From assembly GCA_014871385.1 (NCBI GenBank), contig CM026425.1, forward strand, positions 7,169,243 through 7,233,242: a DNA stretch of 64,000 nt, given 5' to 3'. The translations under genes were made by a program, and so were the position numbers. Positions 15,776 to 49,640 of the stretch are shown piece by piece. How positions within the stretch are numbered: the first letter of the stretch is position 1; each line of letters opens with the position of its first letter. The notes beneath the pieces were generated by a model. That model did no database searches and was not told the origin of the DNA. It saw only the letters and a program-made list of their open reading frames with translations. Source of the stretch: Ceratodon purpureus. Lineage: Eukaryota; Streptophyta; Bryopsida; Pseudoditrichales; Ditrichaceae.

Positions 15776-15865
15776 GGGGAATGCTAGAGCATGAGCACAA
15801 AGCCATGAGCACATGAGCCATGAGCAGGTTTTCATGAGCCATGAGCGAATGAATTACTTTATTTA
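15776..15865 (+). repeat. Left terminal inverted repeat of the giant MULE
   Basis: Starts GGGGAATGCTAGAGCATGAG and continues through several ATGAGC/CATGAGCC repeats. It pairs in inverted orientation with 49545-49640. Confidence 0.8.
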
Positions 15866-16308
15866 GTAAGATAGTTTCATTCTGTATATGAGGATGAAAT
15901 CATCCATGAGTAATGAACTATTTGACAATTATCAAAGTATACTCCAATTGAAATGATGACTGTACACCAATATGTCAAATACAATGAAGTTGATTGTCAA
16001 TTTAGAGTAAAAAAATGGCTGCTGGGGAACAACAATAAATGATGATTAATAAAATTCAGACCTGTCCAATGTCCATGGCCATAACCACTTAGCAACCATG
16101 GCCATGGCCGGTGCGACAGAACTCATCTTCCTCGACCTCTTGAGACACAATTAGTATACAAAACAGGTATGGAGTAGTCACTGCTCTCGCATACGATTCG
16201 CAACAGCTTTCAAGTTCATTATAGTATCGTAGTTGCTGGTTATGGATTAGCGCCACAACCTAGTTTCGGGAAAGGAATCTGTAGATGTTATCAATTTAGT
16301 TTCCTTTT

Positions 16309-18134
16309 GTCGTTACCCGCGTTGGATGCCACCTCGGTATTGACATGCTGTGTCATATGTGCTACGCAATTGTTCGTCGCAGAAACTACCCACCTCAAGG
16401 TATCTCAGTTCAGTACTCCATTCTTGAATTCCAGAATATCTTGTTCGTGTGAATTTTCTAGCATTAAGTTGTTATTGTGTAGCAGGCCAAAGGCGGAGCA
16501 ATCTTTCAAAAACTTTGAGTATTACAAATAAGGCAAGTACCTTAGGTAAGAATCTGAAGTTTTCGCGCGGCATTGATCTTGCTGCGTGATATGGGATTAT
16601 GATATGGGATTCTCGATCGGTTTCAAATAGCTGCGTTTGCTTGTTTTTCATCTGGGTTCTTACCCATCTCATTGCAATGTCATATTTGTGCTACGTACAA
16701 GTAAACCAGCTGTAAATGCTTCATGCTAGTTGAGTGCAATAGTCTGTATGCTTCAAAATATTTGCAGCGCAATGTGTATGATTTCTTCTTTACAAATCTC
16801 TGGTTCATGTCCTTGGTTCAGTACTGAGAAGATATTGAGAGAGATCATCGAGGCGACTGGTTCCTCTGTACTAACCGATTTCCTCATATATTTGTGCAGC
16901 TGATCAAAGTGTCTAACTGGAATCATTTGAAAGCTGTCATTGCGGCAAGCGACACCTGTGCCACATTTGATCAAATCTCGGTACGCAATTTACTGTTTGT
17001 GTAAAAGATCTGTGATGTGTACAAGTCACGCCAGTAATACACTTAAGGAACTACAGATTGTTGATGGTAGATCAGCAGTCATCTTTAACATTGTTACACG
17101 GTGGTGTACTTTAAATGGAAGACTCGGTATTCTGCTTGAATTATGCAAAATAAAACTCTTTAGTCATGAATTTTCATGAATCAAATGTAGACCTGATTTC
17201 TTTGACTTCATTTTGATTGTTGCAGCCGGTGGATTACCCCTACTCGAACTTGAATTCGTTACAGTCTGGCTGCTGCCGCCGGCCTGCGGAGTAAGAATTC
17301 TCACCATTTGAATAGCTTCGATACCTTCTGCCTCTCGTTGAGCACCTCCTTGAAGTGATTCCACGCTTTGCAGCGATACATATTATAATTCATGTGTGCA
17401 TAGACCACAGTAATGTACAATGGAATTGGCTCCTGAATTGAATGTGCATTGATATGGATGCAGGTGCTGCTACACTATGAACGGGAACGGCACCTGCACA
17501 AAGTTACTCAAACGATGACTCCATTAAGTGCTACGACTGTGATTCTTGCAAGTAAGTTACTAATTGTTTTCATGCTTAGTCTGAATGAGACAGGCTTTAT
17601 TTTCTTCAACTTTTCCTCGATCTGCAATTTGATGCGCGGCCAAGGACGATGAGAGTTACACCTTTAAACAAGGATGACCTGCATTGCTGTCTGATTCCAG
17701 TATGATAATTTACATTGAGTGGTTTGGTACGCAGGGGTGGAGTAGCACAGAATCTTAAGAGAAGTGGCAAAATTGCAGGCATCGTCACGCTAGTGATATT
17801 CGTACTTTTGGTAAGCTTCTGATTGCACTAGGTAGCTCATTTGAAGTCAGATTAAGTGTTATGTATTCTCATTTGAATCATATATCTGATGCGGATCCCT
17901 TGAAATTACACGGGTTGGTATTATGGTGGTTGCTTGTCAGTGGGGCAACGCGTTGCGCGGACACAACGTAGATAGTATCTGGTTAGATGAAACATTTTTT
18001 CTCTTTTACATGTGATATAGTTGGTGTTCTCCTTTTGTTGAGGATATGAGTTCTGTTACCAAAACTCACGTGGTATTTCTGTGGTACAGTATGCGTTAGG
18101 TCAAATCTCGAGTATCATGGAAGTTTTCGACTGA
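16309..18134 (+). pseudogene. Captured tetraspanin gene fragment, introns retained
   Basis: Five exons of a plant tetraspanin can be read: 16900-16980 (VSNWNHLKAVI), 17226-17290 (YPYSNLNSLQSGCC, the large-loop CC motif), 17464-17551 (ECCYTMNGNGTC, then SIKCYDCDSCK in another frame), 17735-17810 (GVAQNLKRSGK, then fourth membrane helix IAGIVTLVIFVLL) and 18090-18134 (YALGQISSIMEVFD, stop). All junctions are GT/AG and phases agree, except for a one-base frame slip within 17464-17551. A hydrophobic stretch ending at a donor (about 16309-16398) and a piece at about 16484-16530 may be remnants of earlier exons; no intact N-terminus was found. Tetraspanins are four-helix membrane organisers. Retained introns plus a location inside a MULE suggest DNA-level capture as in Pack-MULEs. 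Confidence 0.65.
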
Positions 18135-18263
18135 ATCATTGGAATCCATTGGCGGGTTTAGGTGGTTTTTTGTGCTAACTGATGAAGATGTTTTTGTACA
18201 ATGTTTTTTGCAGAAGTAAAGAAATGTCAATTGCTCGGTTTGGAAGGGCATAAGTAAAGGGTG

Positions 18264-19631
18264 ATGGAGAGGGGTAATATGGAGAGAGGAAAGGAGTCGT
18301 GGTTTGCATTGGAAGTATCATTGCCCAACTATGGGCTAGATCCTTCCAGAGATGTAAACCACGTTCAAAATGAGGAGCTGCTCCAAGTGTTTGGTGCCAG
18401 ACAGCAGAACTTAGGATACTTCTACCCAGGTGCTAAGTCGGATAGAGTGAAAAGCCGTGTATCAGAATTGTATCCAGCTGTCTACCAGTTCACTAATATG
18501 CCCAAAAATCAGTGTATTACAGAGAGTTTTGCTCGAGCTATTGTCTCAGAAGTTAACCATGGGTACCCAATGAATTGGGCCCAGTACGCAGCTGAGAGAT
18601 GGAGTACTTGCAAGAACTTAGACTTGAAGAGTGAAACTGTGATAAAGTATGTTGGAGCAGAATCACTGAAAGGGACATACTATGAAGTAGCCAAGTCCAA
18701 AATCGAGGGCGAGATTGAGGATTTGAGGGTAGCTTACAACAAAGCAGACGCAGATTACACTAATACGCATGTGTTTATAAGTTCACGGATGACATCACCC
18801 AAAGACCCAAGTGAGGGAGCTGAAAGAGAAGGTCTGCTGGAGCAAATCTCGGTGCTCAAGACTCAGTTGCAGGAGGCAGAGGAGGACTTAGAGAAGTGCA
18901 AGGAGAAGTCAGGTAATGGTACCTATAGCGAGCAGATCTCGAAGAAGATTGGTGAGAGGATGGTCAAGGAGGAGAGGCGAATCATCAAGCTAAAATACAA
19001 AATTAAACATAAAGAGATAGCCCTAGTCGACTCAAAGGGTGAGATTCTTGAAGCCCTGAATCAGCTGGATCGATTGCAGACTGTAAAGGTGAATCTTGAA
19101 GGAGACATGGATAGATTGAAAGGCGTCCTCAAGAAAATGGAAGAACGGGTTCGATTACCCATGAACCTGCGACCTAGTCAACATGTACAGGAAGAAATAC
19201 CAAGCCACAGTACAGATATGATAACAGTAAATCCGTGTGCATTGTGCAATGGCAAATTCCCACACATGGACATCATTGTTGCACCTTGCACTTGCATGTA
19301 TCATCCTTGGTGTATAGTGATGCAGACTTGGTTGGAAGATCGATGCGCAAAGACAGAATGTCGATCAGCCTTCACCAAAAATTGGAAGAGGAGCGTAGGT
19401 CTGGACAGAATGCCAGGTATGTTACCACTATATTTGAAATAAAATGTAAATTCTGATCAGATCATTGTCATTTATGAAACTTAATTTGAATTTGAATGTA
19501 CAGATATCACGAAGGAAGCTACGGTTGGTGAATGTTCCAATCCGAAGACAAAGAGAAGATTCCTCAACAGTGACATAGGGGGCAGAAGTTACACTCCCAA
19601 TAAAAATAAAAAGCGTACAAGATCCAAGTGA
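18264..19631 (+). CDS. Coiled-coil protein with C-terminal RING-like Cys/His cluster (MULE cargo)
   Basis: Exon 1 is 18264-19416 and exon 2 is 19504-19631; phase 1 is preserved, giving about 426 aa. Residues about 140-305 are rich in Glu/Lys/Leu heptads, a likely long coiled coil. From Cys325 there is a pattern C-x2-C, then C-x-C-x2-H-x2-C, then C-x3-C, which resembles a RING or related zinc finger but does not fit the canonical spacing. The last 43 residues are basic (KTKRRF, NKNKKRTRSK), like a nuclear localisation signal. The frame is open and splices cleanly, so it looks expressed. I do not recognise the N-terminal domain. Possible roles include a partner of the transposase or a ubiquitin-ligase-like factor; both are guesses. 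Confidence 0.7.

Positions 19632-21496: not shown

Positions 21497-21499
<3 letters not shown>

Positions 21500-21566
<67 letters not shown>
21500..21566. repeat. (AT)n microsatellite
   Basis: Uninterrupted AT dinucleotide repeat of about 66 bp. Confidence 0.95.
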
Positions 21567-21568
<2 letters not shown>

Positions 21569-22501: not shown

Positions 22502-22680
22502 TATATGTATAGGAATATGAAATTAGAAATATTACTGGAAATTTGGATTTATATTATACCTCAATAAACACTAAAATAACACTTAACGTGATAAATTCTA
22601 TGTACATATGCATGTATATATATATATATGTATGTATATAATTGTTACTTTATATAAACAATAATACTAAGATTCACTTA

Positions 22681-23365
22681 TGTTATCTGGGAACGTGCGA
22701 TGGAGCTGCTGGAGGCGGTGATAGGCAGGGGGAGCGTGGGAACCGGTGACCAGCAGCCTCGGGCAAAAGGGGCAGGAGATAGGACCACGGTCATGGGTTC
22801 CTTGGGGTCCTTGGACCAGGACTCAGACCGTTAGGACTTCCTAGACTTACAAGGGACTCGAGGAAGACGAATGTCTTAGGGCAGGCGAAGGGGGTATTAC
22901 AGAGGAGCACGAGACTCTTTAGGAGATACAGACTGACCCGGGACGACAAGGCAGAGATGACAGTGGTGCAGGACCTTAGCCTGTGAGACCTCACGCATCA
23001 CTAGGTAGTTCAAGGTTAGGGTTAGAGAAGTGATCACGCAAACAGTCTAAGGGGCATTAGGTAAGGAGCATCAGAGGAGATGGGTAGAGAAGCAAGTCCA
23101 TTAGCAAGAAAAACCCTGAGTCCTCACAGAGTAACGAGGCTCGGGAGTACAAGGAAAAACAAGCAGACCGTGACACTGACTCAACATTGTCTAGTAATTA
23201 CGAAGAGTCCCAGTTTCTCCTAGCTACCCTGCTTTATACTCTAAAGCTATCCTATTTTTCTGCTTCAACTACTACTATGCTTCTTCGACTGCTCCTTCCT
23301 TGGCTTCACTGCGAGTTCCCACCGCCCCCTGTTTGCCTTGATCACCGTGGCTGTGGTTGGTAACA
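22681..23365 (-). repeat. 3' LTR of the Gypsy element
   Basis: 685 bp, TG...CA ends, matches 31191-31875 with no difference seen by eye. Confidence 0.95.
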
Positions 23366-23408
23366 TTTAGCCCTTCCTTCGAGATTGCAATCCGTCCCGG
23401 ATTGCAGG

Positions 23409-26400
23409 TCAGCCACGGGTGCGTCGGTGGGCGGGTCGTCGGTCCGGTCGGGTTTCTTCTCTGGGCACCTGTGCAAGTCTTCGCGGAGGAGCTTGGTTCC
23501 CGTAGATGTCGGCTATGGCTGCACCCACACCTCGATGAATTAGGTTGTGCTGTGTCCTAGAGGTTAGCGCATGTTGGTAAATATCATAGACCGTCTTGCC
23601 TAATGTTTTATTGCATGCAGGGCATTGCACATGGTTAGCCTCGGGGTCACTGTACATGGCAATGAGGTCAGGGTTAGCATGAAAATATTTCTTGACTTCT
23701 GCAATTGCAGTCGCTAACTCTTCCTCGGCTTCCTCTTCATCGCTGTTTGGTTCCTCGAGGTTAAATTCTTCTTCTATCTGTTTCAAGGCATCCTTATGTT
23801 TTTTAAAAGACTTGGGGCGCAGGGATACCATGGAATTCACCTGTGGGGGTGAAGCTCGGGTTTGTGAAGGGAGGTGTGGTGACGGTTGTGGAGTGTCCTC
23901 GGGATCTGTAAACTGGTCAGGGATATCCACGCGCTCTTGGTCCTCGGAAATGTGAATGCTTGGAGGTCGTGGTTCTGCCTGGGGCATCTGGAGGGGGCTG
24001 ATCGGGGCTGGCTTGGAAGTTGGTGGTATAGACAGGGCCGCTACCTCCAAGTTCTCGAAGTCTATGTTGTCGAACTCCATGTTTTCCCAATCATTTTCGG
24101 ATTGTTCTAACTCCATGGTGGCCAATGTAGAATCGATGCAATGATCGAGAAATTCTTGTGGGGGATCTGCTGCGGTTGAAGGGTGCTCCCGGAGCCATGC
24201 ATACGCACTGTTGGTGATTAGTTTGGCTGCCATGTGAATCCATCCTGCCTTGTTAGCCTCGAACTCTTGGAGGGCTTGCTCAGCCGTGGTCCTCTGATCT
24301 TGATGGTATAAGCTCTCCTCTCCGCCCTGTGACTTCTGTCCTTGCCTTAATGCCTCGTTTTGTGATGTAAGAGCCTTGCACCTTGCTAAGTACTCTTGTC
24401 CTTGCTGTTCCAGGTGTTGGACGCGCTCCACAGCACTGGCTTTTTCCTTGGCGAGCATGTCGACGTGGTCTTGTGCTGCCCTGATCTCCAGTTCGAAATT
24501 AGCAACTTGGTGACGCAAGTTGTCCAGGGTTTGATCCTTCTCCTCTATCTGCTGGCGGTACTCACTGTGTGTTTTGTCGAGGATCCGTTGGGCCTGGTCC
24601 CGGGCACCCTGGATGGCCGAGGTCACCTTGCGTCGGTATCGTTCCTCCATGTCTCTCTGCTCCTCTTTCTCCTGTTCTGCTGTGCGAATCCATTCCAGCA
24701 TCTCCCCTACGCATTCCGAAAGAGCCGTGCTCTTGGTGTGGAATCTTGTTGCACATGGCCCCCATGCAGTTGCTGTTTGCGATACTGATGTTGTTCCTGT
24801 TGGCTTGGCAGGTTCCTCGCTGCGTGGACGCTTGCTTGGTCCTGGGAGATTAGGGTCGCGTGCCGCAGCCGTGGCGAGCTCTCGCTGAATGTCAAAGAAG
24901 GTCCCCATCAGAGGGCCTTTGCCATGCCTCCGATAGAATGCCAGGTAATTCTGGATGTACGCGCTGAGGAATGGCCCAATGGGGCTGTGGTAGTCAAGGT
25001 CCTTCCGATGCCCAAGCAGCTGAACGCGGAAATTCTGCTCTACTAACATTCCCCAATTGATTTTTTCACCCTGGTCGGCCATGAGGAGTAGGGACAACTG
25101 TTCTGGCAGGATGCCATTACAGTTGTTCTGAAAATACACCTGACTTAAAACTCCACGCATACGTGAAAACCATGGGTCTGTCAAATGATCACCCAAAGCG
25201 AATACATCGTACCTCTTGTCCTCCTTGAGCTGCAGATTTCCGACGCGGGCCGCTATGTCGGGCTGTGGGTGTCGGCAGTCGCTGCTCCAAGTCGTGACTC
25301 CCAAGCCGTCCCAGCCGAAAAACTTGTGCAGATAGCGCGCGGAGAACTGCACCAGCACTCCTTCCACCATCCCGGATGGGTAAAGTTCTGTCTCATCCCG
25401 AGTTCGCATGGACGCCATGAATTCGTTGCAGTGCTTGATGTTCACCTTGCCTTCTACCAGGGTCCAGTATTTGCCTAGTCCGACCTCGGTGTGCCAAATA
25501 AGATCCGGCTTACGTTTCCACTCTAAAATCATACGCGGGACATAGAAGGGAGGGTATGTTTTTCTAGCTGTCTTCATGGTGACTAACAATGTGTGTGCTG
25601 GGTGTGAGAGCCAGGGCAAGAGGAGAGGAAGACGGGGCTGCAAGGAACTACCAGGAGAAGAGATGAGGACAGGGGCGTCGCGGACTGAGCCAGCGCGCAA
25701 TGGCAGCAGTGGAGGGTGAAAAACAGGGAGACTTGAGAGAGGAGAAGGAAGATGAAGTGACCCAGGGTGTGCTGATGATGATCCCTGGAGCCTTGGCGGC
25801 CGAGACTGGACTGATGGGCAAGGGCTGGCATGGTGGAGATGATCGTGCCTACATCCTAGCGTAGACGGTGGCGGCGGGAGCCTATGGATGCGGAAACCTG
25901 TAGGTCCTGGGTATGTCCCATCGTTGGGACATTCAAGTTGGCCTTGGCCAGCTGGAAGGCATACGCTGATGTGGCTTACATGTATGTCCACGGTGTCATT
26001 TGTTTCCTTGGAGGCCGAGGGGATGGATGGATCCACATCATCTAGATTTGTCTGAGCTTCCGTGGCTAATCTGTTGTAAATTTCTCCTAAGCTGAGTGTG
26101 GGCGTGGTTACTGGTGTGTCCGAATGATAATGTTTTAATTTTGTGGAATTTACTATAGTGGCGTAGGTATCAAAATTCTCGCTGTTTACTAGTAAAACTG
26201 TGTTGTTGGGAAGCACTAACTGGACCCTATACGGTCCATGCCAAATTGATTCGAACTTGGTCTTTCGTATCTTGGGGTCCCTGGGACACCATAATACCTG
26301 GTCACCCTTTTGAAAATTCCTGATTGGTTTGGTAGACTGAAAATGTCTTGTGGTTAGCTCCTGTTTGTGCTGTATGTTTTGGATGGCTTGGGCTCGGATT

Positions 26401-29400
26401 TCCTCTAAATGGTGTATATCCTGTATCCGAGCAGCCAAGACCCTGTGCGGCGTGTAATCCTTGGTGCGTAATGATTGGAAAGTGGGAGCAATATATTCTG
26501 TAGGTAGTAATGGTTGGGTCCCATAGACCATTTCAAATGGACTGACTTGAGTAGCTGTTTTCGTCGCTACGCGGTATGCCCATAGAGCAGCTGGTAAGCA
26601 GTCATCCCAATCGCTTTGGTTAGCATGAATGAATCTACGTAACATGTTTATCAAGGTTTTGTTAGTGGATTCCGCCTGGCCATTTCCTTGGGGATAATAG
26701 ACGGTGCTGGTCCTGTGCTTGATAATGTGATTATCTAACAAGTCTTCTATGACTGCATTAACGAAGTGAGAACCTTGATCTGACACGATTTCCAAGGGGC
26801 ACCCGAAGCGAGTGATAATATTGTCATATATGAAAGACGCTGTTACCAGGGCAGTATTGGTTCTTAATGGTTTGGCTTCTACCCATTTTGTGGTATAATC
26901 CGTGGCAGCCAAGATATACTTGTATCCCTGTTTTGTTACCGGACGTATTGGGCCAACAAAATCCAGCCCCCATCGTTGGAATGGGCCTAATGGTGGAATT
27001 GTTTTTAGAGGTACTTGACCTTGATATTGAAAATTTGTTGTTGACACCTGACACGCATGACAATTCTTGATGTGAGCATGGACATCCTTGTGTAAGGTTG
27101 GCCACCAGTAACGGGCTCCTAAAATCTTTTTTATCGTGGTTTCAGGGCCTTGATGTCCCCCTGCTGGGCCGTCATGAAGGATGGAGATAATGTTCGTTTC
27201 TTCCCCCTTGGGTACGCAGAGCCGGGTCTCCTGGTCGAGACCGCGTCGGTAGAGCTGCCCCTGGATTACTGTATAAGGCAGGGTGGTCCGTACGAAGCTG
27301 ATTTTACGAGAACCTGATAGTCCTGGGGGCGTGGTGCCCTGGGTGAGGTATCGCATAATGTCACCTCGCCAGTCGCTAGGGATCTCGATGTCAATGCGAG
27401 CTGTTTGGATATACGGTTCATTAAATGAATCGTCAATACCTTCCTCGGTGGCCTTGGAATCCCTGGACAGATAGTCAGCCACTATGTGGCGTTTACCAGG
27501 GACATACACCACCTCAAAATCATATTCAAGGAGTATCATTATCCAACGAGCTACCCTCCCTGTAACTAAGGGTTGGTTAACCAGGTAAGACAAGCTGTGG
27601 TGGTCAACCATGAAGCGAAACTTGTTTCCAAGTAGATAATGTCGAAATTTTTTAACAGCATAAATCATGGCCAAGGCTTCCCTTTCAGTGGTAGAGTAAT
27701 TCCTTTCTGCCTGATTTAGGAGACGACTGGCATAGGCTACTGGTTGATCGTATTTGCCGTTTAAATTCTGGGCTAACATGACTCCAACCGCAATGTTGGA
27801 TGCATCTGTATGAACATGAAAGGGCTTGGACCAGTCTGGGGCGATGAGAATGGGAGCGCGAGAATAAGCCAGTTTAATTTTCTCAAGGGCGGCCTGGGCT
27901 TCCACGGTCCAATCTTGAGGGTACTTGTATTTGCTATGATTGAGTGCAGTGATGGGTGCAGTTATGTGGGCTAACTTTTCAATATATATCCTATTGAATT
28001 GTGATAGTCCCAGGAGACGCTGTATCCCCTTTTTATCTGTGGGGGGTGTGATTTCGAGGATGTCCTTGATTTTCTCGGGGTCAGGGAGTTTGCCATATTT
28101 GCAGACAATGTAGCCTAGTATTACTCCGGCAAAAAAGAGAAACATGCACTTGTCAGCGTTTAAGCTTACTCCATTGGCACGGCAAGCTTCAAAGATTTGC
28201 CTGAGTTGGGAAATATGATCTTTAATATGTCCATAAACCGTTCCATCGTCTAGATAAATCCTAAAAAATCTCTTCAAATATGGTCGGAATATTAACTCCA
28301 TGACACGCTGGAAGGTCATGGGGGCGTTCTTGGCTCCGAAAGGCATTCTCTCGAACTGATACGGACCCCATTCCGTGGAAAACGCTGTTTTGTTTTTATC
28401 CTGTTCTGCCATGGCAACCTGGTAATACCCTGAAAAACAATCTAGAAATGAATACATTTCATGGCCTGCTACTTCATCAATGATTTCTTCCATGTAAGGC
28501 AAGGGATAATGGTCTTTCTTGGTAGCAGCGTTTAATTTGCGGAAGTCTACACAAATCCTTAATGTTCCATTTTTCTTGGGAATGATCACCATGGGAGACA
28601 ACCAGGGGGCAGAGTCGACTGGTGAGATAAACTTGGCTTTCAAGAGCTTGTCTAGTTCCGCCTTGACTCTCTCAGCGTAATTTGGATTCATTCGATATCT
28701 TCGTTGCTGCACTGGGGTGGCATTAGGTACTAAATCTATGGTATGCTCTGCTAATGTTGAAGGTATCCCTTTGAGGTCCTCGTGTCCCCAGGCAAAGATG
28801 TCATGATATTCATGAAACAAAGCTATTGCGGCTTGTTTAACCTGATCTGGGGCGTCGGCGTTAATTTTGATATACTTGGGATTTTCTGTGGTTCCAAGAT
28901 TAACTAACTCCACTTTGTCTTTAGCTCCATGGGACCAGCCTGTAACGACTTCCTGCTGTAGGGTTTGGTTGGCAGGAACGGCGTTCACTGTGATGTTTTC
29001 CTGGATTTCCTGGGAAAAATGTGGTGGTATATCCATTCTGTCGTGCTCAGCTACCATACTGGCCAGATGTATTTCTGCTACTGGGATTAAATCAGGATGG
29101 GCCTGGAACACCATGGCTTCTTGTTTGGGAGATAACCCCTTGGTCCAATTAGTCCCAGCTTTGTGTCGAATCTGATTGGCCTTGGCCCTGGTGATACAGC
29201 TATCTACGGGAATAACCATGGTTTTTCCTTGTTGTTGGATACGTATCTGATTCCTGGACCAGTCATGAATTGCATTCATGTCCCTCAACCAAGGTCGTCC
29301 GAGGATTACGGGAAAACTACTGCTATTTGGCATGTCAATTATTACAAATGTTGCAGGAGTTGACACCCCATGTGTAGTAATGTCTACCGCGGATAGTATG

Positions 29401-31142: not shown

Positions 31143-31190
31143 GGAACCTTAGAATACCTCAGCAATCCATCCCCAGCATGGTCGCCAAAA

Positions 31191-31875
31191 TGTTATCTGG
31201 GAACGTGCGATGGAGCTGCTGGAGGCGGTGATAGGCAGGGGGAGCGTGGGAACCGGTGACCAGCAGCCTCGGGCAAAAGGGGCAGGAGATAGGACCACGG
31301 TCATGGGTTCCTTGGGGTCCTTGGACCAGGACTCAGACCGTTAGGACTTCCTAGACTTACAAGGGACTCGAGGAAGACGAATGTCTTAGGGCAGGCGAAG
31401 GGGGTATTACAGAGGAGCACGAGACTCTTTAGGAGATACAGACTGACCCGGGACGACAAGGCAGAGATGACAGTGGTGCAGGACCTTAGCCTGTGAGACC
31501 TCACGCATCACTAGGTAGTTCAAGGTTAGGGTTAGAGAAGTGATCACGCAAACAGTCTAAGGGGCATTAGGTAAGGAGCATCAGAGGAGATGGGTAGAGA
31601 AGCAAGTCCATTAGCAAGAAAAACCCTGAGTCCTCACAGAGTAACGAGGCTCGGGAGTACAAGGAAAAACAAGCAGACCGTGACACTGACTCAACATTGT
31701 CTAGTAATTACGAAGAGTCCCAGTTTCTCCTAGCTACCCTGCTTTATACTCTAAAGCTATCCTATTTTTCTGCTTCAACTACTACTATGCTTCTTCGACT
31801 GCTCCTTCCTTGGCTTCACTGCGAGTTCCCACCGCCCCCTGTTTGCCTTGATCACCGTGGCTGTGGTTGGTAACA
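31191..31875 (-). repeat. 5' LTR of the Gypsy element
   Basis: 685 bp, copy of 22681-23365. It should contain the element's promoter; the primer-binding site follows at about 31171-31190. Confidence 0.95.
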
Positions 31876-31880
31876 ACTTA

Positions 31881-38600: not shown

Positions 38601-40344
38601 CTGGGAATAGGATACCACGGCCTTTTGTCCACAGGCAACTCCTGAGCCTTGATAGCCGCGCTCATCTCATCAGGAGCAAGTAAATCCCGAAATTGCTCAA
38701 TTGGCAAAGATCCGAGTTTTTGAATTCGATGCATAGTATGGACTTGGTTCTGCTTCACATGCGAGCTTTCATTTGATTTGTTGATGTCGTGCATTGCGGT
38801 TAGTACATCCGTCACGTCCTTTTCTGTCTTGAGCACAATGGATCTTACCCTGAAGTGCCAATCATAATCTTTTCTATGCGATTTCTTGATAAAATCATAC
38901 CACGCTACTAGACGGTGATTACCATCCCACACGTAAAAATACTTGTCTGACAACGATGCGAGCTCGCTGTCACGTTTCAAGAACTCCTCAAACTCTAAGT
39001 CTCTTTGCCGCCAATTAGCACTCCATTTTCCTCGATCCTCTGCGGTAACCATCTTCTCTTGACCTTCAAAGTTTGTTGTTGAAACATAAAAAGCAGCTGC
39101 TCCATCGCGGTAGCCATGGACAAACTCAGCTTGCATCTTCGTGATGTCATTCTCCAGCGCAGGGCGTACCACCTGCAACTTCCTCATTCTGCACAATGGT
39201 ATATCTATGTGAGATTTACCACCTTTGAACATCTCCAGGCGCTTCAAGATCTGGGTAGAGTTCACCCTGGTCTGTCGATGTGCTACAATCAAATCGTACT
39301 CTTGTGCCGAATCCAGTGCTGGTCCAGACAGCTCCAGTTCTCCATCAAGGATTCCTTCGTTATCATCTTCCTCATTGTGGTTAAGTACCGGGACTCTGTC
39401 AGGTGCATCATCCTGAAACACGAGTTCCTCTATCATATCATGCTCCTCGTTATCTCCATCGGAGCCAGCATCGTCTTCCATTCCAGAGTCATTGCCACCA
39501 TATCCTAAGTAATGACAACAGTATTATTGTTAAGATATCCATCGTTCGACACAGACCAAGGCAATTGAGCGACGGCAAATGTCGATACTAATGAAGTTAA
39601 TTAGAAAGCACAGATGTTGCATTCGAATGATTACATATATTGCTCATAGATATTCAGAATCTTACCAAGTTCACCTGCTCTCTGTGCTTTAGCAGCATGA
39701 TCGAAGTCAGACCCATCTTCTCCCCGTAGAGCACCCGGTTCTGCAACTGCAAAAGGAAGTCAATATTGTGTACATCGAACATTACAGAATTGTGAGAGGA
39801 CTATGTTCCTTGTTTAAGAATTAAATACCCGTGCTCTCTTGTGTTTGCTGCAAGATTGCACCATTCTCGTCACCAGCGAGTAACATGTCGTTAATATCTG
39901 GGCAAAAAAAATGCATGAGTTAATTTCGGCCTGAGCAAGCTCGTTACAGAACGTACTTTCTTGTGCATACAGATCCTGTCAATTCATGTAGCCTTCAAGA
40001 GCCATTCATATCATTAGCCTTACGAACAATCATTCGTTTGTCACAGAACGGTCCATCATGAATTCAGTCCATTGCCATTCACATAACAAGGCCATCCAGA
40101 ACATTGAGATTCAAACATAAATCAATACACAAGTTAACTCCAAAATGGCCACATACATGCACTCGTCACAGAATACGTCATCTTACATTAACACAATGCA
40201 TCATCTTACATTTTGTTGATTACTGCCAGGGAGACTCAAGGTGATTAACATACCGATTTCTCCTGTCACGACTTCTTCAAGTCGGTGTAATTCCTCAGAC
40301 ATTTTGCTCGACTCTCCCTGTTCTTGCTGATTTCGACTCCCTAT
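32678..40344 (-). CDS. ParB/Srx-like domain fused to beta-class DNA N4/N6 methyltransferase (MULE cargo)
   Basis: Ten exons can be joined with every phase consistent: 40254-40344, 39829-39897, 39666-39740, 38573-39504, 38287-38481, 37013-37452, 35733-36402, 35298-35639, 33904-34336, 32678-32946. Starting at the Met at 40302 this gives about 1157 aa; further 5' exons are possible. Residues about 130-350 look like a ParB/sulfiredoxin fold (IPLCRMRKLQVVRPAL and YVWDGNHRLVAWYDF, with GNHR at 259-262 in place of the bacterial GxRR). A Lys/Arg-rich linker (SKSKGG, SKRGKK) suggests nuclear import. The methyltransferase part has motif IV VIIDQPF (835-838) before motif I GDIVVDLNASTGAS (1015-1023), the beta-class order of prokaryotic N4-cytosine/N6-adenine enzymes. 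Both motifs deviate from DPPY and DPFxGxG, so activity is uncertain. Introns hold many of the 14-bp palindromes. Confidence 0.78.
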
Positions 40345-42447
40345 CTGTAATAAAAAATGCAGGTCTGTGAGTCTTTCGGCACAGAGCATGATAAGTTAGA
40401 AGCTGATGAATGCTCACAAATCCCCTAAGTATAAGAAAATCTATGATTCTCAACAAATATATGGTTAAAATTGCTTAATCTCTTGAAAAACATATGGAAT
40501 TGGCGATTAAATCAATACCAGATGCCACATTCTGTGCAAAACGACAATTCTATATAGAGTCTCTAATACATCTGACCTAGCGAAGCACCAAAGCTGAAAC
40601 ATGAGTAATCGCAGGTGATTATCAACTAACTAAGTCACTGATATCATTGACCTCTGTGTGCCTACATAAGACTGCAAGTATGACTATCACATAACTCATA
40701 TAATGTGCCTACATTACCCCTATTCGGCACAAAACACCATAAGACTCTAAAGAATAAGCATCTCAAGTTTACGTGAATGGTACCCAGAACATGCCCCGGA
40801 CCAATTACTCGGAATCCACATTTGTGCTTTGAACCCCTGTTTGGTACGGAACTTCAATTTCATTTGAACTACTACATTCTACGAATGATACCAAGCGTAC
40901 CCATGTGACCATTGCTCGGCACAGAACGTCACATTAATATTAAATATCATGATCCAAATCTAGAACAGCGCGTAGCCATTCACGAGACCCTTGAGCGTCT
41001 GCAAAATGATGGGCTCCGCATTTCGGCACCTGTTAGGAGTCTTGTAGAAATCTACTTCCAGGGGAGCTGCACTCACCCCTCCATGGCAACTCAACAGTGC
41101 CACTACAATCAAAGTCACGTAACAGAAAGAAGCCCTCATGTCAACCATCTCTGCAAATCAGTATGCCAGTATTCACTCAGTCACGAAGACCTCACCACCA
41201 CACCGATGGTCGACTAGGAAAAGTAATCTGAAATGCAATTGCTCTGCGACGTACCACATTGTACTACTGCCGTAGTCGGGTATTTATATGAACAACTTCA
41301 GAGCACAGTCCACTTGACAAAATGCATGCACAGCTTAGTCCAGCCTACAAGTTCATTCAGTTGCAACTTACGAATCCCTTATTGATCAAGTCTTGCACTG
41401 CACCACCGTGACACGAGCTTCACATTCCGTACCCTAAATGTGGTACGATATGATCCGAGGACGCCTAAACGGGCAGTGACTGTAACTCCTAAATCTACTG
41501 CTGATCGATCGACCACCTCGTCGTAGACTTTTCCAATCCCAAATGTCAACTCCGGAGTTCTCCACTGTTGACAGAATCCCCTCTCTTAATTTGCACTATG
41601 ACTGAGCCAACTGAAGTACCTAGAAACCCATGTTCGGCACCACTCCATTACATTTATTCAAACCATCTGAATCCACATCTAGGAACTATCAATCAATCTG
41701 AATCCACATTTGAATGAACTAAGCTAAAAGCCTGCCTCGTTATACGCAGAGTAGAACATAGTATCATTCTTAGTTATCCCTGTTCTGCACAGAAGTATCA
41801 TTCACTCTCATATCGAACAAAATTCCTGAACTTATTAGGTACCTGTAAACTTCTACTTGGTATAAAACACCTAAGGATGTCTACAGCGTGGACCCAATAT
41901 CACGACACATACTCCGAACTTTTCTATCGAAGAAGCCAAGAATCCAACCATGACCTGCTAAGAACAATGTGGACATGGAGCAAGAGCGCCCCTGGATCTG
42001 AACCAAAATTACTACATGGAAACATAGTTCGAACACACTTACATAACAAGCATCAAGCATCAAGGATCACAAGCAGTCTGAACAATTCATCACATATAAG
42101 TGAGCAATCACGCACCCAAACGATTACAAACAGCGCAAACCAAATCGACACTTGCCGACCCTAAGCAGAGTAGATTCAGATCCTCGACCTTGTACAGAGC
42201 ATAGTACCTTCACGATATTCATTACTTTTGCTACTTCCATCCACCAGATCGCATCAACGAAAAAGAAAAATAAATATAGATAACTATAATTTGAATTACA
42301 TTTGAGCTACATTACTGTCACAATTCTATTTGCTCACTAGGCTAGGCCAACCGTCATTATTGCTTGATACGATATTATTTTGTATAATCAAGGTATCATA
42401 CATGTGTACTTATTCTGTCGCTTTAACGATACTCATCCAATGTACTT
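40345..42447. other. Region upstream of the ParB-methyltransferase gene
   Basis: Besides the peroxidase-like fragment, this 2.1-kb stretch contains several 14-bp palindrome variants (near 40372, 40725, 40842, 40913, 41790). It may hold 5' exons, UTR or promoter of the methyltransferase gene. I could not place them. Confidence 0.4.
40960..41148 (-). pseudogene. Captured class III peroxidase first-exon fragment
   Basis: The frame begins MVDMRASFCYVTLIVVALLS, a clear signal peptide with hydrophobic core. It continues LEVDFYKT...CRNAEPIILQTLKG, resembling the mature N-terminus of plant class III peroxidases (typically L-x-x-x-FY-x-x-x-CP-x-AE-x-IV). The distal catalytic histidine region is absent and the frame stops after 62 residues. 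No further peroxidase exon was found nearby. It sits inside the giant MULE, so a captured fragment is likely. A short secreted-peptide gene is the alternative. Confidence 0.45.
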
Positions 42448-43064
42448 CTACTCCATCATGTTTTCTACATTGTGAATTGCTTCATCGTCGAGCCCTTCAT
42501 AAAACTCACAATACATGTGATATGATTTTTCATGGCTCCAAACCTCATCGGCTTCACTGAAGTGACTCTCATAATTCAAGGTGCCATCGGGGTTGTCTAA
42601 TGAGACGTCTGATGGGAGTGGTGCTGTTATTTGAAGTTCAATATTTTCTCTCTCTCTAGGAGCATCTCTAGGCCAAACTATAAAATATGTAACAAAGACA
42701 GCCAAAACCGCAACTAGAACAAGTGCCTCAGATGACATCTCCAGTAATATGTATACACTGAGCGCTCTGTCTGGCATCATCGCAGTCTGGAAAAAACAAA
42801 TATGGCTGCAGATGTCATCTCTATATTCTTTTTGAAATAACATATGTCTATATGCTAATGAAGAAGTTTGAAATATTGCGTGTGGCAAAACGATACCTCT
42901 TGAAGTTGTAGCATAGATGCAGCTAATCTTCGTCTGGAGTAAGTCCTTGAGTAGTACTCGACTCCTGAATCATGCGCCTCTAGAAGGGACCTCTCCTCAC
43001 TCAAAGATCTTCCCACAGACTCTAGTAATGCCTTTGCTCTCCTAACAGCTCTCGTCTCGACCAT
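42448..43064 (-). CDS. Small single-pass membrane protein (MULE cargo), function unknown
   Basis: Exon 1 42897-43064 and exon 2 42448-42786 join in phase 0 (GT donor, CAG acceptor) to give 168 aa. The N-terminal about 55 residues are charged and helical (RAVRRAKALLESVGRSLSEERSLL). Residues about 72-92 form one hydrophobic helix (ALVLVAVLAVFVTYFIVW). The C-terminal about 75 residues are acidic. No family recognised. The clean splice and intact frame inside the MULE suggest a real cargo gene. Its membrane location sets it apart from the nuclear-looking neighbours. Confidence 0.55.
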
Positions 43065-44614: not shown

Positions 44615-47600
44615 ATGGCTAGCCAAGTAGTATCGTTCAGGCTCTTGACCTCTTCGATTCCATTCATTCTTCTTGTTGATGACACAGGCTTTGTTAGTGT
44701 TGATGAGAGGTTGCTGTGTCTTAAGTTTCAGTTACATGAGAGCTCTTTAATTGTGGAGAAGGAGGAACTGGGAGCTGATGGAGTGGTTCTCAGGACTATC
44801 TATCAGAAACCAGACCTTATAGATGGTAGGACAGTTTACACGCTTCGTGCAGGTAGCTACACTATCATAGGTGGGTTATCTACTCTAGACATGTCTCAAT
44901 CTTCTACTCTGACTCCTCGGTCTAAAGCTACATTTGAGCGACGAGGTCGTGATTATCTCAAGCGAGCGTTACCAACTGTGAAAGAGTCTCCGGAGAATAC
45001 TATCAACTTGTTGAGTTCTGATGATGAGGATGATGAGGATGACATAGTAATGCAGTCATTTCATTTTAGTGCAGATGGACCATGTGATCAGAAAGAACTC
45101 ATCAGTGAATCCTGTGAGGCCATTGCTGACGACTCTTTCGTGGTTTCTGAGACGCCATCACGGAATATAGTTTCAGAGTCCTTCTCTATGGACACACCAT
45201 GCTCGGCATCTGTACAACGTGGTCCTAGCTATCCAATAGAATCTGAGACCTCTATGCCAGTGAAGTCAGAAACTATTGAAGTGACTGCTTCAGTTGAGAT
45301 CAAGTCTTCAAAACTTTCTGTGGCAGATACCACAGAGACATCCACAATAAGCATCTATGACTTGATTGTGGCCCTTGGCAATCAAGGATCGTCGAAGAGT
45401 ATTTTGAAATCTGCGGATTTATCATCCTTTTCCCATTTGAAGGTGAAGTATTTACCTGTTCAATACAATGGGAATGTTATTTTCGAGTTGCCACCTCTGC
45501 CTTGTGTCAAGGAAGGAGGAGCAGGATTGCTTGAAGGTATGGATCGAAGAAGTGATGGACATGCTTGGACTGAGACTGCAACAACAAACATCTCAGATCG
45601 AAATTCGGAGCTCTCATTCAAGTACGTCAAGTGTTTAGGACATCTTCGATGTTTAAATCCTACATGTCCTCATCTGATCCGCAATGGCGACTATAACGAC
45701 ATGTACTGGGAAGGATCCAGCCCCGAGATTTTGACACCTGGACCAACACCTCTTCTACCAAAGAGATGTTCTGTCCTCTGCCGATTCTGCAGAGTTGCTC
45801 CCGCTTGTTTGAAGTTGTGCACGTGTAGAATGTTCTATATTGTCTCTAAGAATCCTTGCATGTCCAGGGCTGCTGTTCACATAGGAACACATGATCATCC
45901 AGTTGCTAATGGAGAATGTAGAGAGGCTCTAGATCTTATCAAGGAGGAGATTTTGACCCAAGTGGCCCGAACACCAGGAGCTAAGGTTTCAGCGATAGGA
46001 ATGGCAGTAGGTCGGGAGCTTCTACTAAAAGGCCTCGTTGATGTAAGTGGCGACGGCAAGAAGCTGACAGAGGCAGAAATATCCCAGGTGTTTGACAAAT
46101 GGGCAAAACTGAGCACTCCAAGCATCCGTAATATGATTGCAGAGGCTAGGCGCTTTTGTGGTGAGGGCGGATTCATTGACAACATTCTCAAGTTGAAGAA
46201 GGCTTCAACTTACGATTATATACATGATAGTGTTTTCCCCGGACAGGGGAGTGACTTAGTGTATCTATTCAAGATGTCGACTTGTGGCGTAGGAAGCGGT
46301 GTTGGTCTTGTGAAGAGAATGCAAACTGGAGGAGACCTTGAAAATGAGTGGGTCATGTTTGACCATGTCAGGAGAGTGAAGGAGTGGTCGACCCTGGGAA
46401 TCCATGTCTATGACCCTGATTATTGCAAGGTTATGACCATAGCAGTCTGCGACATGCAGTCTGAGACAACTGAGGCGCAAGAGCGTATGTGGTTGTCTAT
46501 GCTAAACGTCTTGGAAAAGCATGGGGTCACAAATGTGAACTTCAAAGGCTTCATGGCAGATTCGGCTCAAGCGAACTTCAATGCTGTGAGATCCATATTT
46601 GGATCAGGAAACTCGAAAGAGCCAATGGAAGGTAGGGAGCGTACATGCCAATTCCATTGGACAATGGCGTTAGATCGTCATACAAAGCAACTTATCAAGC
46701 CAGAGCTGCAACAAGTCCACTTGAAGTTGTGCCAAGATTATCGAAAATCTCGCACTAAAGCAGATGCTGATACCGCTTTGGCAGCGATCAAGGCTTGGTG
46801 GTTTTCATCTGGTGCAGTTGCTGAAAGCTCTTTAAAAGAGCTCCACGACTGGATAAATTTTTGGCATTTTCGCTACCATCAATGGGGCTCTCACATCTCT
46901 GAGGTATGTGTCCAAAACTCAAAATTTTATCTATTATTTTAATTTGCTTCTTTAATTATTTCGAAGTTCGCTATTTGCAAAACAAACCTGTTATATGATT
47001 ATGGATCGAAAAGGGTGTTCTATTCCTTTTGTTCCTACACAAAAAAAATAGGGTGTTCTGCACAGAACACATTCTTTTCATCCAATTTGGTTCTCCTTGT
47101 TTTTGCCCCCTAGAGGTGTTCTGTGCAGAACGCTACTTTCGTTTACCTTCCCTTACACAAACTTGGAACTGAAGTGGAGTTCTGTACAGAACGCTGTGTG
47201 TCTAGGCATCCAGTGGCTCCAAGTATTGGGAACTCAATGATGTTCTGTACAGAATACCCTCCACTTCTGCATTAATGATTTTCAGGCATCCAGTGGGTCC
47301 AAGTATTGGGGAATAGATAGTGTTCTGTACAGATCACCGTCATCCACTTTTGCATTAAAGTTTTTCAGGCATCCAGTGGGTCCAAGTAGTGGGGAATAGA
47401 TAGTGTTCTGTACAGATCACCGTCATCTCATGCATTCTAGATTTTCATTCGACTTTATGTTGAATAAGCACTAAGCCGAGAGGCTGAGATCTTTTATAAG
47501 TTGAGATATGATAGAAGTATATCCTTATCTATAATGAAGAGCATCTGTGCTTGTTAATGAATTATTTACCTTGATTGTCTTTCCATTTCAATTGCATTTC

Positions 47601-49121
47601 TTTTGTACTTTATGATGTTGACATTTATATTAATCTTTATGATTGCAGTTTCTCTCCTTTGAGGAAGAGGCTTCTATGCCAACATGCAATCTGTCTGAGA
47701 CAGTACACAACAAATGGCTGCAAGCATCTGGGAATGATATGGTGGATCTCTACAATGCCACACTTGATGACTATTGCAGAGCCGCATTACAGTCAACACA
47801 ATATCACAACTTCCTCAAGGGGCGTATTGGTGGACAAGGGCCATCTCGGAATGTGTTGGCGCTTCGTCTCGCTACTCGTAAGGGTAACCCTGTAAAAGTG
47901 GCGCAGATTGTTGGTCAAATTTCAGGCGAGGCCGGTTTGAATTCGAGGTTGCCTCATCTTGAAGGTGAAAACATTTTTGGTTCAGCAAAGAGGAAGTTAG
48001 ATTTGGCTCCTGGTGATGATGATGATTCACATCGCCATGACCGAGTGAATTTCACTCTTCCCAAGTTAGGGAAAAATATGACGCCTGGACAAAGCCGGTC
48101 GTTGAATCAGAATTCCACCACAAGCAATCCTTCACTCACTGAAGGCTCTGTAGAAGGACTTGTGGTTACTCGCAACGGCCTTCCAATCCGTGAGACTCCT
48201 TGTTACAATCCCATGGACTGGCGGATTGAAAGAATTTCACCTCAATCCAAGGACCAATGCAGAGGCTATAACAGCGAAGGCAAGAGATGCAATGCGGTGA
48301 TGGCAAAGTATCGAAGGGCTACAGCTGCTCCAACATTTACTGGCCTTCAAAGGAAATTCAAATCTCAAGATACGGAGCAGAAGCAGTTCTGGTTTTGCCC
48401 ATCCAAATTGGCAACTTGTGTAATGGGGAGTCGATCTAAGTCTGTTATGCATTATCCTATTGTTCCTAATGTCTGGCCTATTAAGGAGGGGACTAATTTA
48501 TCACAAGCAGAGGTCGACAGATTGGAATCTGCAGGTTTCATGTTGGAGGAGGATCACCTTCTTCCATCTAAGGGGATTGAAGTTGACAAGGAGGATGTCC
48601 ATCGGCCTAAAGAGAAGTCCTCTGATGCCTTTCATTGGAGCAATCCTATCTACGCTCCAACTGAGCCTGTTGATGGTCCAAGACCTCCTAAGTCATCTGG
48701 AGATTACCGTCCCACCATGAGAGATGGTAAGAAATTCAAGAATGTGTCTGAACCTTCACCTGAGCATGTTGCCAAGTTTGTCAAATCAATTACCACCGAC
48801 TGCTCTGTGGTAAAATATGTGAAGGTTCCATACCCAGGCTATGGAGTTGTTTACACTATCCACACTCCTGGCTCCATTGCCAAGAATCAATTGTATGAGG
48901 TTTCAATTGGAGATTTTCCTGCCTGTACATGCCTTGATTTTATTACTATGAAGACCACAGCCCTTGGTCGTGGTCAGAAGAAGTGGATCCTCTGCAAGCA
49001 CCTTTATTGTCTTCTTCAACGATACATGGGATGTACGGTGGACGATAAGTTCATTCACCGGCCAGCTTGGACATTCAATGAAGTTGGCATGCTTTTAGAC
49101 AGATGGAATTGGGAGATCTAA
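44615..49121 (+). CDS. MULE transposase with SWIM zinc finger, intact, two exons
   Basis: Exon 1 44615-46903 and exon 2 47649-49121 join in phase 0, giving 1253 aa. The N-terminal third is acidic and Ser-rich. A Cys-rich DNA-binding-like cluster follows (CLGHLRCLNPTCPHL...CSVLCRFC...CTCRMF, about 345-410). The MULE catalytic domain has AVCDMQSET (D613), FKGFMADSAQANFNAVRSIFG (D649), the C/H motif CQFHW, and a C-terminal Glu candidate in NLSETVHNKW (E780, in exon 2). Near the end is a SWIM finger with Cys1189, Cys1191, Cys1212, His1214 (C-x-C-x20-C-x-H), a common partner of MULE transposases. It should bind the terminal repeats and catalyse cut-and-paste with 9-bp duplications, matching the element's ends. 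The exact assignment of the DDE residues is inferred. Confidence 0.85.
47203..47430. repeat. Three tandem ~82-bp units in the transposase intron, each with a palindrome
   Basis: Units begin GGCATCCAGTGG at about 47205, 47285 and 47368. Each contains TGTTCTGTACAGA. Three more palindromes (47054-47067, 47118-47131, 47179-47192) stand just upstream in the same intron. Confidence 0.75.
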
Positions 49122-49544
49122 TTCTTTATTTTGTTCACAGTATCTTTTATCTTGAGAGTATTCTAAGGATGCCTTATCGCTATAAGTATAGTGTTAGAAG
49201 GTCTTAGAGAATGATGCGTATGTTTCATTCTCCATTCTAGTATTAATTGGCAAGTAGTTTGGATTTGATTGGATTTGTGCCAATTAAATAAGCATCCTTC
49301 ACTATTTCTTGTAAGCCATATATTATCTATATATCTCCTTATTTGCTGTTAGCCTCTTATAATTTACGTATCTTCTTACTCTTTGTAAGCCTTTTATAAT
49401 CTATGTATCTTATTTTATGTCCTGTAAATTCATACCTACTACCTTTTATGTGTACACTTGGAAACCTGGCCCTTGAAATATTGGATGAAAATCATTCGGC
49501 GCAAGTTTTCAGTCATCAGTGATGCAAATTTTCATTAGGTCGTA
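49122..49544. other. Transposase 3' UTR and MULE right subterminal DNA
   Basis: AT-rich, with imperfect repeats of a TGTAAGCC...TTATAATCTATGTATCTT type at about 49310-49420. No gene. Confidence 0.45.
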
Positions 49545-49640
49545 CTTACTATAATTAAATAAATTTCATGAGCCATGAGCGTAAAAAGTACGCTCATGGC
49601 TTACAGCTCATTGCTCACTGCTCATGTCATAGCCTCCCTC
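49545..49640 (-). repeat. Right terminal inverted repeat of the giant MULE
   Basis: Read inward it starts GAGGGAGGCTATGACATGAG and continues through ATGAGC-type repeats to TTTATTTAATTATAGTAAG, mirroring 15776-15865. Confidence 0.8.

What the first reader, a model, noticed from the sequence alone, without database searches (positions are those of the whole stretch)
15776..49640. A 33.9-kb autonomous Mutator-like element with cargo genes, proved by an internal empty site
The window shows both ends, a perfect 9-bp duplication (TTTCTTTTT), related inverted termini opening into ATGAGC repeat arrays, an intact transposase, and a paralogous copy of the target in reverse orientation at 61.25-61.75 kb without the insert. 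Most plant MULEs are far smaller. Even without the nested retrotransposon this one is about 24.7 kb and carries at least three other intact genes, so it is comparable to giant cargo transposons.
Basis: partly seen in the sequence, partly recalled or inferred. Interest (0 to 1): 0.95.

Follow-up and report, generated by a model that had tools for sequence, protein, structure and literature searches.

The report
Giant moss transposon with methylase-like gene
A moss genome carries a family of unusually large cut-and-paste jumping genes, about 25 to 29 thousand bases long, that keep a bacterial-type DNA methylase-like gene next to their transposase, which suggests that this gene helps the element move or stay active rather than being accidental cargo.

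Summary
The element is 15776-49640, with a perfect 9-bp TSD and an inverted paralogue at 61.3 kb that lacks it. The genome (362 Mb, inferred Ceratodon purpureus) gave 40 left-end and 40 right-end matches (capped lists). 32 pair into elements of 15.6-74 kb, the window's included; 20 of 32 are 22.8-28.7 kb. 18 of 19 other pairs tested have perfect 9-10-bp TSDs. A sister copy (24,692 bp) is colinear except for one left segment and lacks the nested Ty3/gypsy insertion, so the base size is about 24.7 kb.

Three corrections. (1) Besides the transposase I find two genes, not at least three: a RING-like gene and one long spliced gene ending in an N6/N4 DNA-methylase-like domain. (2) They look like core genes: the methylase gene lies divergently upstream of 71 of 90 transposase loci (0.5 expected), in three clades down to about 50% transposase identity. 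(3) Mutator membership rests on TSD length and by-eye motifs; Pfam's MULE model misses this transposase.

Best reading: a divergent MULE-like giant transposon lineage whose methylase-like helper probably acts on the element's own DNA. Its catalytic motifs are atypical, so methylation is uncertain.

The parts
15767..15775 (.). left copy of 9-bp target-site duplication TTTCTTTTT
   Evidence: exact word once at the empty site (61294-61302, reverse strand)
15776..49640 (+). giant MULE-like element, 33,865 bp (24,665 bp without the nested LTR retrotransposon and its TSD)
   Evidence: borders supported by 40 left-end and 40 right-end matches in the genome; TSDs in 18 of 19 other pairs
15776..15846 (+). 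left terminus with six ATGAGC subterminal repeats
16006..18258 (.). left segment not shared with the C3 copy; parts shared with the C2:14307 and C6:96681 copies
18264..19442 (+). RING-like/coiled-coil gene, ORF 394 aa stop to stop; the zinc-binding pattern is read by eye (only Pfam hit: zf-SAP30, below cut-off)
   Evidence: dN/dS 0.17-0.32 in 17 comparisons; upstream on the transposase strand within 80 kb (median 20-21 kb) in 25 of 28 clade A and 19 of 27 clade B loci
22676..22680 (.). TSD ACTTA of the nested LTR retrotransposon, left copy
22681..31875 (-). nested Ty3/gypsy LTR retrotransposon, LTRs 100% identical over 686 bp aligned, one 2579-aa ORF
   Evidence: absent from the copies in L012, L013, L022, L026
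31876..31880 (.). TSD ACTTA of the nested LTR retrotransposon, right copy
32678..43064 (-). methylase-like gene: probable start exon at 43064 (MVETRAVRRAKALLE), unresolved exons, then seven exons 39523-38573, 38481-38287, 37452-37013, 36402-35733, 35639-35298, 34336-33904, 32946-32678 with GT-AG introns (1,099 aa open)
   Evidence: annotated C. purpureus protein P0131 (1147 aa) matches 100% of the query region at 60%
33904..35639 (-). exons coding the PF01555 N6_N4_Mtase-like region: motif IV DQPF, motif I region DLNASTGAS
   Evidence: PF01555 E 6.6e-7 for the 33890-34363 frame; PHROGs DNA methyltransferase E 7.3e-8; match spans profile 2-217 of 221 in P0131
38573..39523 (-). N-terminal conserved region with WDGNHR motif (ParB/DndB-like only by eye; DndB E 0.03, below cut-off)
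44615..49121 (+). transposase gene, two exons (44615-about 46903 and about 47649-49121), 1253 aa in one of several open splice models
   Evidence: exon 2 aligns with the C-terminal half of P0046, whose N-terminal half aligns with exon 1
49558..49640 (-). right terminus with ATGAGC/GCTCAT repeats
49641..49649 (.). right copy of the 9-bp TSD
61080..61749 (-). paralogous uninterrupted target (empty site at about 61294-61302), part of an inverted repeat

Best explanation
15776-49640 is one copy of a family of giant, probably autonomous cut-and-paste DNA transposons of a moss. A divergent MULE-like DDE transposase (44.6-49.1 kb) presumably binds the ATGAGC subterminal arrays (inferred), excises the element and inserts it with a 9-10-bp stagger (duplications shown). 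The element carries two further genes: a RING-like protein, and a long spliced protein transcribed divergently from the transposase and ending in a prokaryote-type N6/N4 DNA-methylase-like domain. Recurrence of the methylase-transposase pair across three clades, and low dN/dS where it can be measured, indicate that these genes serve the element lineage (shown statistically). The most likely role of the methylase-like protein is to recognise the element's own DNA and counter silencing or assist transposition, as VANC or MURB do for other MULEs (inferred, perhaps 40%). Actual base methylation is possible but doubtful. A Ty3/gypsy element inserted later, raising this copy from 24.7 to 33.9 kb.
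For: Borders and empty site. 40 left and 40 right ends, 32 pairs. Perfect TSDs in 18 of 19. A sister copy of 24,692 bp colinear apart from the 16006-18258 segment and without the retrotransposon, and a 27.5-kb copy with the same genes. Of 32 pairs, 26 contain a transposase hit, 26 a methylase-gene hit and 25 both, all in the expected orientation. 71 of 90 transposase loci have the methylase gene divergently upstream within 30 kb; random placement mean 0.47, maximum 3 in 1000 trials. 29 of 32 PF01555 matches in the genome lie in this arrangement. The seven methylase-gene exons recur in order in one locus each of clades A, B and C. 20 of 24 full-length clade A transposase-core matches have no stop. 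dN/dS: transposase 0.08-0.38, RING 0.17-0.32, first large methylase exon 0.10 in its one measurable comparison.
Against: No Pfam MULE or SWIM hit in the 23 members of A1 or in exon 2, and no PDB sequence hit for the transposase profile. Motif IV is D-[QT]-P-[FY] rather than DPPY, and DVPE in a clade C copy; motif I lacks FxGxG, so catalysis is unproven. The best PDB hits of the methylase exon were 28 residues of designer PPR proteins (E 4e-4), ahead of DpnA methyltransferase (E 1.4e-3). Several dN/dS values rest on 0-4 changes, one methylase exon gives 0.75 and the 42448-42969 frame 2.8. The C3 sister copy has a stop in the transposase and one in a methylase exon. One of 19 pairs lacks a TSD. 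5 of 32 pairs have neither gene in the scored lists. No expression or mobility data. TSDs were checked only in clade A.
Confidence: 0.85

Rival explanations
1. True Mutator superfamily (MuDR/MULE) element, only very large, with accessory genes.
For: 9-10-bp TSDs fall in the 8-11 bp range given for MULEs (PMC6446971 passage); by-eye order D...D...CxxH...NLxExxxN and CxC-x20-CxH (SWIM-like).
Against: PF10551 gives 93 matches in this genome and none lies within 10 kb of the 94 transposase matches; no Pfam MULE hit in the 23 members of A1 at E up to 5. Long TIRs, usual in MULEs, are absent (about 21 bp, imperfect).
Confidence: 0.65
2. A separate superfamily of cut-and-paste transposons that converged on 9-10-bp duplications.
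For: No recognisable Pfam or PDB sequence relative despite 92 related database proteins.
Against: Catalytic signature and SWIM-like finger read like a MULE (by eye).
Confidence: 0.3
3. Captured-cargo element: RING and methylase genes are host genes picked up by chance (Pack-MULE style).
For: Left segment 16006-18258 differs between copies; one clade A copy carries a RING relative at only 32% identity (L028); RING relatives at 32-40% also lie away from the listed transposases, so exchange occurs.
Against: Same gene order and orientation in separate clades; 29 of 32 PF01555 matches are in this arrangement, so no obvious host donor of the methylase gene was seen.
Confidence: 0.08
4. Segmental duplication or assembly artefact around a minisatellite, not transposition.
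For: The site is an 18-bp minisatellite inside one arm of an inverted repeat.
Against: Same borders at dozens of unrelated sites with different perfect TSDs.
Confidence: 0.01

Closest known systems
VANDAL/Hiun MULEs with VANC anti-silencing genes, Kaonashi (ULP1) MULEs, maize MuDR with mudrB (PMC6446971, PMC13317346: passages read)
   Same: MULE-type transposase plus extra element-borne genes, 9-bp-class TSDs, helper gene thought to act on the element's own DNA
   Different: Helper here is a DNA-methylase-like protein; most elements are 22.8-28.7 kb; host is a moss; transposase not matched by the MULE model
Transposons encoding epigenetic enzymes: TET/JBP transposons of fungi, SET-bearing MuDR/HarbingerS of Phytophthora (PMC12730594, passages read)
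   Same: DNA transposons carrying chromatin- or DNA-modifying enzyme genes beside the transposase
   Different: Prokaryote-type N6/N4 methylase-like domain instead of dioxygenase or SET; different transposase
Enlarged En/Spm families of Chondrus crispus, 16-20 kb (PMC6431247, passages read)
   Same: Oversized eukaryotic DNA transposon with several ORFs
   Different: Other superfamily and smaller
Lanisha (Maumus, McDaniel and Carey 2020, seen only as a reference in PMC12730594; its use for C. purpureus elements is recalled)
   Same: Proposed cut-and-paste superfamily, recalled from the same moss
   Different: Lanisha is EnSpm-like, in a clade with mostly CA..TG ends and 2-5-bp TSDs; here GGGG/GAGG ends and 9-10-bp TSDs
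Ghost MULE of an aphid with a RING-finger ORF (PMC6446971, passage)
   Same: MULE with a second ORF carrying a RING finger
   Different: Truncated transposase, no TIR/TSD found
Starships of fungi (search listing only)
   Same: Giant mobile element with several genes
   Different: Starships are classified by a tyrosine recombinase (search listing); here a transposase with DDE-like motifs and 9-10-bp TSDs

Membership tests
Mutator/MULE superfamily | 8-11-bp target-site duplication | tested here: met
   18 of 19 other pairs: 9 or 10 bp, perfect; the window copy 9 bp
Mutator/MULE superfamily | MULE transposase domain (PF10551) | tested here: not met
   0 of the 23 members of A1 (window plus 22 database proteins) at E up to 5; 93 PF10551 matches in the genome (150 of 384 candidates scored), none within 10 kb of the family's 94 transposase matches
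Mutator/MULE superfamily | DDE triad with CxxH between the second D and E | tested here: inconclusive
Mutator/MULE superfamily | SWIM or other zinc finger | tested here: inconclusive
   CxC-x20-CxH in exon 2, a similar finger in P0046; no Pfam hit; PF04434 genome search did not complete
Mutator/MULE superfamily | long terminal inverted repeats | tested here: not met
   about 21-bp imperfect TIR (15 of 21) plus ATGAGC arrays; non-TIR MULEs exist
Lanisha/CMC (EnSpm-like) | CA..TG termini and 2-5-bp TSD | tested here: not met
   GGGGAATG / GAGGGAGG ends, 9-10-bp TSD
Pack-MULE (gene-capturing non-autonomous MULE) | no transposase, host gene fragments | tested here: not met
   transposase hit in 26 of 32 pairs
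N6/N4 DNA methylase family PF01555 (for the second gene) | score over the curated cut-off | tested here: met
   29.9-35 bits against 26.7 for the window frame, P0131 and P0132, 27.5-28.2 for clade B and the C5 copy; but a clade C piece only 15.5 bits
N6/N4 DNA methylase family PF01555 (for the second gene) | catalytic (D/N/S)PP(Y/F/W) and FxGxG motifs (motifs recalled) | tested here: not met
   D-[QT]-P-[FY] and DL[NSA]ASTG in the window, C5 copy, clade B copy, P0131 and P0132; DVPE and DCTAATG in a clade C copy
ParB/DndB-like domain | significant model match | tested here: inconclusive
   of 27 members: DndB E 0.03 in one, ParB C-terminal model PF18064 E 0.12 in one, among other chance-level families; NCBIfam no ParB or DndB model
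autonomous transposon | demonstrated transposition | not testable with these tools
   open genes and perfect TSDs only

The most novel reading that the evidence does not exclude
Mosses host a distinct deep lineage of giant DNA transposons, possibly its own superfamily, whose defining helper is a prokaryote-derived DNA N6/N4-methylase-like protein. The element uses it to mark or read its own DNA and escape silencing, and the methylase-transposase pair has been inherited as a unit through divergence to about 50% transposase identity.
Probability: 0.3. Interest if true: 0.85.

Novelty: new variant of a known kind. Interest (0 to 1): 0.72.

Why it matters
In the review passages read, the Pack-MULEs of a 2004 survey did not exceed 7 kb and enlarged DNA transposons of a red alga reach 16-20 kb (PMC6431247). 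A multi-copy family mostly of 22.8-28.7 kb, with mostly open transposase genes and perfect TSDs, suggests that cut-and-paste transposons can stay this large in a plant. The linked methylase-like gene gives a directly testable case of an element-encoded DNA-modification or anti-silencing factor, and a possible source of prokaryote-type methylase domains in plant genomes.

Tried and rejected
Rejected: artefact or segmental duplication; chance cargo; Lanisha/CMC (TSD and termini); treating the 42.86-43.07 kb ORF as a separate gene. Led nowhere: viral-contig scan with the transposase profile, 27 pattern matches and no relative; PDB searches with A1 (none) and A2 (two chance-level hits); NCBIfam scan of A2 and PHROGs scan of the N-terminal region. 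Contig lengths of the database hits, compared by eye, shared no value, so co-location in other species was not shown. Paper searches for giant MULEs, methylase-bearing transposons, C. purpureus transposons and MuDR in bryophytes listed no title or abstract that describes this element; the C. purpureus genome paper tried by a DOI from memory is not held.

Counts: genome lists are capped (one search scored 92 of 2415 candidates, 123 of 3051, 106 of 2685, 40 of 85 each, 150 of 773), so totals are lower bounds. One search used 90 of the 94 rows (four partial rows left out) and the rows down to E 4.3e-35 (eleven short rows left out); its random placement used guessed lengths for C1 (30 Mb) and C11 (17 Mb) and left out the small contigs. 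One search used the rows except the last and had no random control. One search used 46 methylase-exon rows and 48 transposase rows typed from those tables, so its '29 of 32' and '44 of 46' are for that subset. L018 and L019 (C101, C13) look like the same locus twice.
Full report
Observation. The element runs from 15776 to 49640 and is flanked by TTTCTTTTT. A self-comparison shows 15320-15775 matching 61749-61294 (99.8%, 456 bp) and 49643-49901 matching 61336-61080 (94.6%), so the 61.3-kb copy is an uninterrupted paralogue. It belongs to an inverted repeat that also includes 51.0-53.4 kb against 59.0-60.8 kb. When the flanks are joined, they align through the site with two extra 18-bp units on the filled side. 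Because the site is a minisatellite, I did not rely on this TSD alone.

Genome-wide proof. The window lies in a held genome (G000, 362.5 Mb, C5:7169243-7233242). A 201-bp query across the left border gave 40 scored matches (of 85 candidates); 32 of 40 start at the predicted first base or 1 bp before it. A query across the right border gave 40; 30 of 40 stop at the last base or 1 bp after it. Pairing by contig and strand gives 32 elements of 15,574-73,968 bp, the window's included; 20 of 32 are 22.8-28.7 kb. I checked duplications in 19 pairs other than the window: 10 have a perfect 9-bp and 8 a perfect 10-bp TSD, each a different sequence; one (C7:1917252-1894093) has none. The copy at C3:10689679-10714370 (24,692 bp) is colinear with the window element except for the left segment 16006-18258, small gaps and the retrotransposon. 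It is not fully open: one stop in the transposase and one in a methylase exon. Without the retrotransposon and its TSD the window copy is 24,665 bp.

Species. I therefore infer C. purpureus, with C6 the V sex chromosome (the locus tag of P0128 contains VG).

Genes. (a) Transposase: two exons, 1253 aa in one of several open splice models. Exon 2 aligns (36%) with the C-terminal part of P0046, a single database protein whose N-terminal part aligns with exon 1. The core gave 94 matches in the genome, chiefly in three groups at 91-100, 78-85 and 49-51% identity; 20 of the 24 full-length matches of the first group have no stop. 92 database proteins are related. (b) Methylase-like gene on the opposite strand: seven exons with GT-AG introns give 1,099 open residues. 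An annotated C. purpureus protein of 1,147 aa aligns over 100% of the query region at 60%, and its N-terminus matches a frame starting at 43064 (51% over 45 residues), so the gene probably spans 43064-32678, with exons between 42.9 and 39.5 kb unresolved. PF01555 is met above cut-off, and PHROGs DNA methyltransferase families match (best E 7.3e-8). Among PDB sequences the exon's best hits are 28 residues of designer PPR proteins (E 4e-4), then DpnA adenine methyltransferase (E 1.4e-3). Motif IV is DQPF in the window, the C5 copy and the clade B copy, DTPF in P0131, DQPY in P0132 and DVPE in a clade C copy; motif I reads DL[NSA]ASTG, and DCTAATG in clade C. The N-terminal region has a conserved WDGNHR motif, but the model matches are at chance level (DndB E 0.03 in 1 of 27, ParB C-terminal E 0.12 in 1 of 27; NCBIfam), so 'ParB-like' in my working notes is only a by-eye label. 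(c) RING-like gene 18264-19442: Pfam gives only zf-SAP30 below its cut-off, so RING is by eye. In the first 10 kb of 20 other left ends it is near full length in 15 (76-94%, one with a stop), present at 32% in one, partial or broken in three and not found in one.

Core or cargo. Of 90 transposase loci, 71 have the methylase gene divergently upstream within 30 kb (26 of 28 in clade A, 21 of 27 in B, 24 of 35 in C); random placement gives a mean of 0.47 and a maximum of 3 in 1000 trials. The seven exons recur in order in the C5 copy, one clade B and one clade C locus. Of 32 PF01555 matches listed for the genome, 30 have the N-terminal exon upstream and 29 also the transposase; the exceptions are C8:9595672, C1:5958254 and C5:15306119. 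The RING gene lies upstream on the transposase strand within 80 kb in 25 of 28 clade A and 19 of 27 clade B loci (medians 20.5 and 21.1 kb), but in only 2 of 35 clade C loci, at 47 and 56 kb and probably chance (no random control, capped list). RING relatives at 32-40% also occur away from the listed transposases. dN/dS against the window is 0.17-0.32 for RING in 17 comparisons. In the two full copies it is 0.08-0.13 for transposase exon 1 and 0.11-0.38 for exon 2. The first large methylase exon gives 0.10 in one comparison and is saturated in the other. The shorter methylase exons give 0.11-0.75 where computable, some from 0-4 changes, and the 42448-42969 frame gives 2.8 from 12 changes. I read this, taken together, as long-term selection on the element's own genes.

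Autonomy and decay. 25 of the 32 paired elements have both transposase and methylase-gene hits, all in the expected orientation; five of 15.6-16.9 kb have neither in the scored lists. One of these, C4:7780596-7796169, holds transposase remnants with stops and traces of the last methylase-gene exon. The long copies (40-74 kb) probably hold nested insertions; I did not read them through.

Superfamily. MULE TSDs are 8-11 bp (PMC6446971, passage), and the transposase shows D...D...CxxH...NLxExxxN and a CxC-x20-CxH finger by eye. Against this, neither PF10551 nor a SWIM model matches; PF10551 gives 93 matches in this genome, none within 10 kb of the 94 transposase matches. I therefore call it MULE-like and leave membership open.

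Mechanism. Shown: insertion with 9-10-bp duplications, shared ends, recurrent gene set. Inferred: transposase binding to the ATGAGC arrays, and a helper role of the methylase-like protein on the element's DNA. VANC and MURB are the nearest known analogues by role. Not shown: expression, methylation, current movement.

Literature. Passages of PMC6431247, PMC6446971, PMC12730594 and PMC13317346 were read; other papers were seen as search listings only. PMC6446971 has no occurrence of moss, bryophyt, Physcomitrella, methylase or methyltransferase in its main text. That this element is undescribed rests on the searches named in Tried and rejected and on an open-licence library only; Repbase and the C. 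purpureus genome paper could not be checked.

Noticed in passing
window 22681-31875: Ty3/gypsy LTR retrotransposon with identical LTRs and one 2579-aa ORF; the last 1,030 aa, after the integrase region, match no Pfam model.
   Followed up: partly
window 15320-15775 with 49643-53384, against 59018-61749: Large inverted repeat with patchy identity (78-99.8%) around a 5.6-kb spacer holding a Tc1-like transposase fragment (PF01498, 54810-55469); no TSD seen at its outer ends.
   Followed up: partly
window 50427-50510: About twelve tandem GTTTAGG units, a plant-type telomere repeat (recalled), inside one inverted-repeat arm.
   Followed up: no
window 49734-49804 and 61175-61245: tRNA-like sequence (Rfam 36.8 bits, histidine-type by recall) in both arms, not called by ARAGORN; perhaps a SINE.
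   Followed up: no
G000 C6: Giant-family transposase matches seem under-represented on the presumed V chromosome (18 of 94; 16 of 90 used, p 0.008 against 30% of the genome), while PF10551 matches are mostly on it (60 of 93). Both lists are capped.
   Followed up: partly
G000 C8:9595672-9600584: Methylase gene copy with no transposase in the list; probably the annotated protein P0132: remnant or candidate domesticated gene.
   Followed up: no
G000 C1:5958254 and C5:15306119: Two PF01555 matches in long open frames (567 and 569 aa) with no methylase-gene exon upstream in the list.
   Followed up: no
L028 (C10:9058547-9068546): Copy with clade A ends and transposase but a RING gene at only 32% identity: gene exchange within the family.
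   Followed up: no
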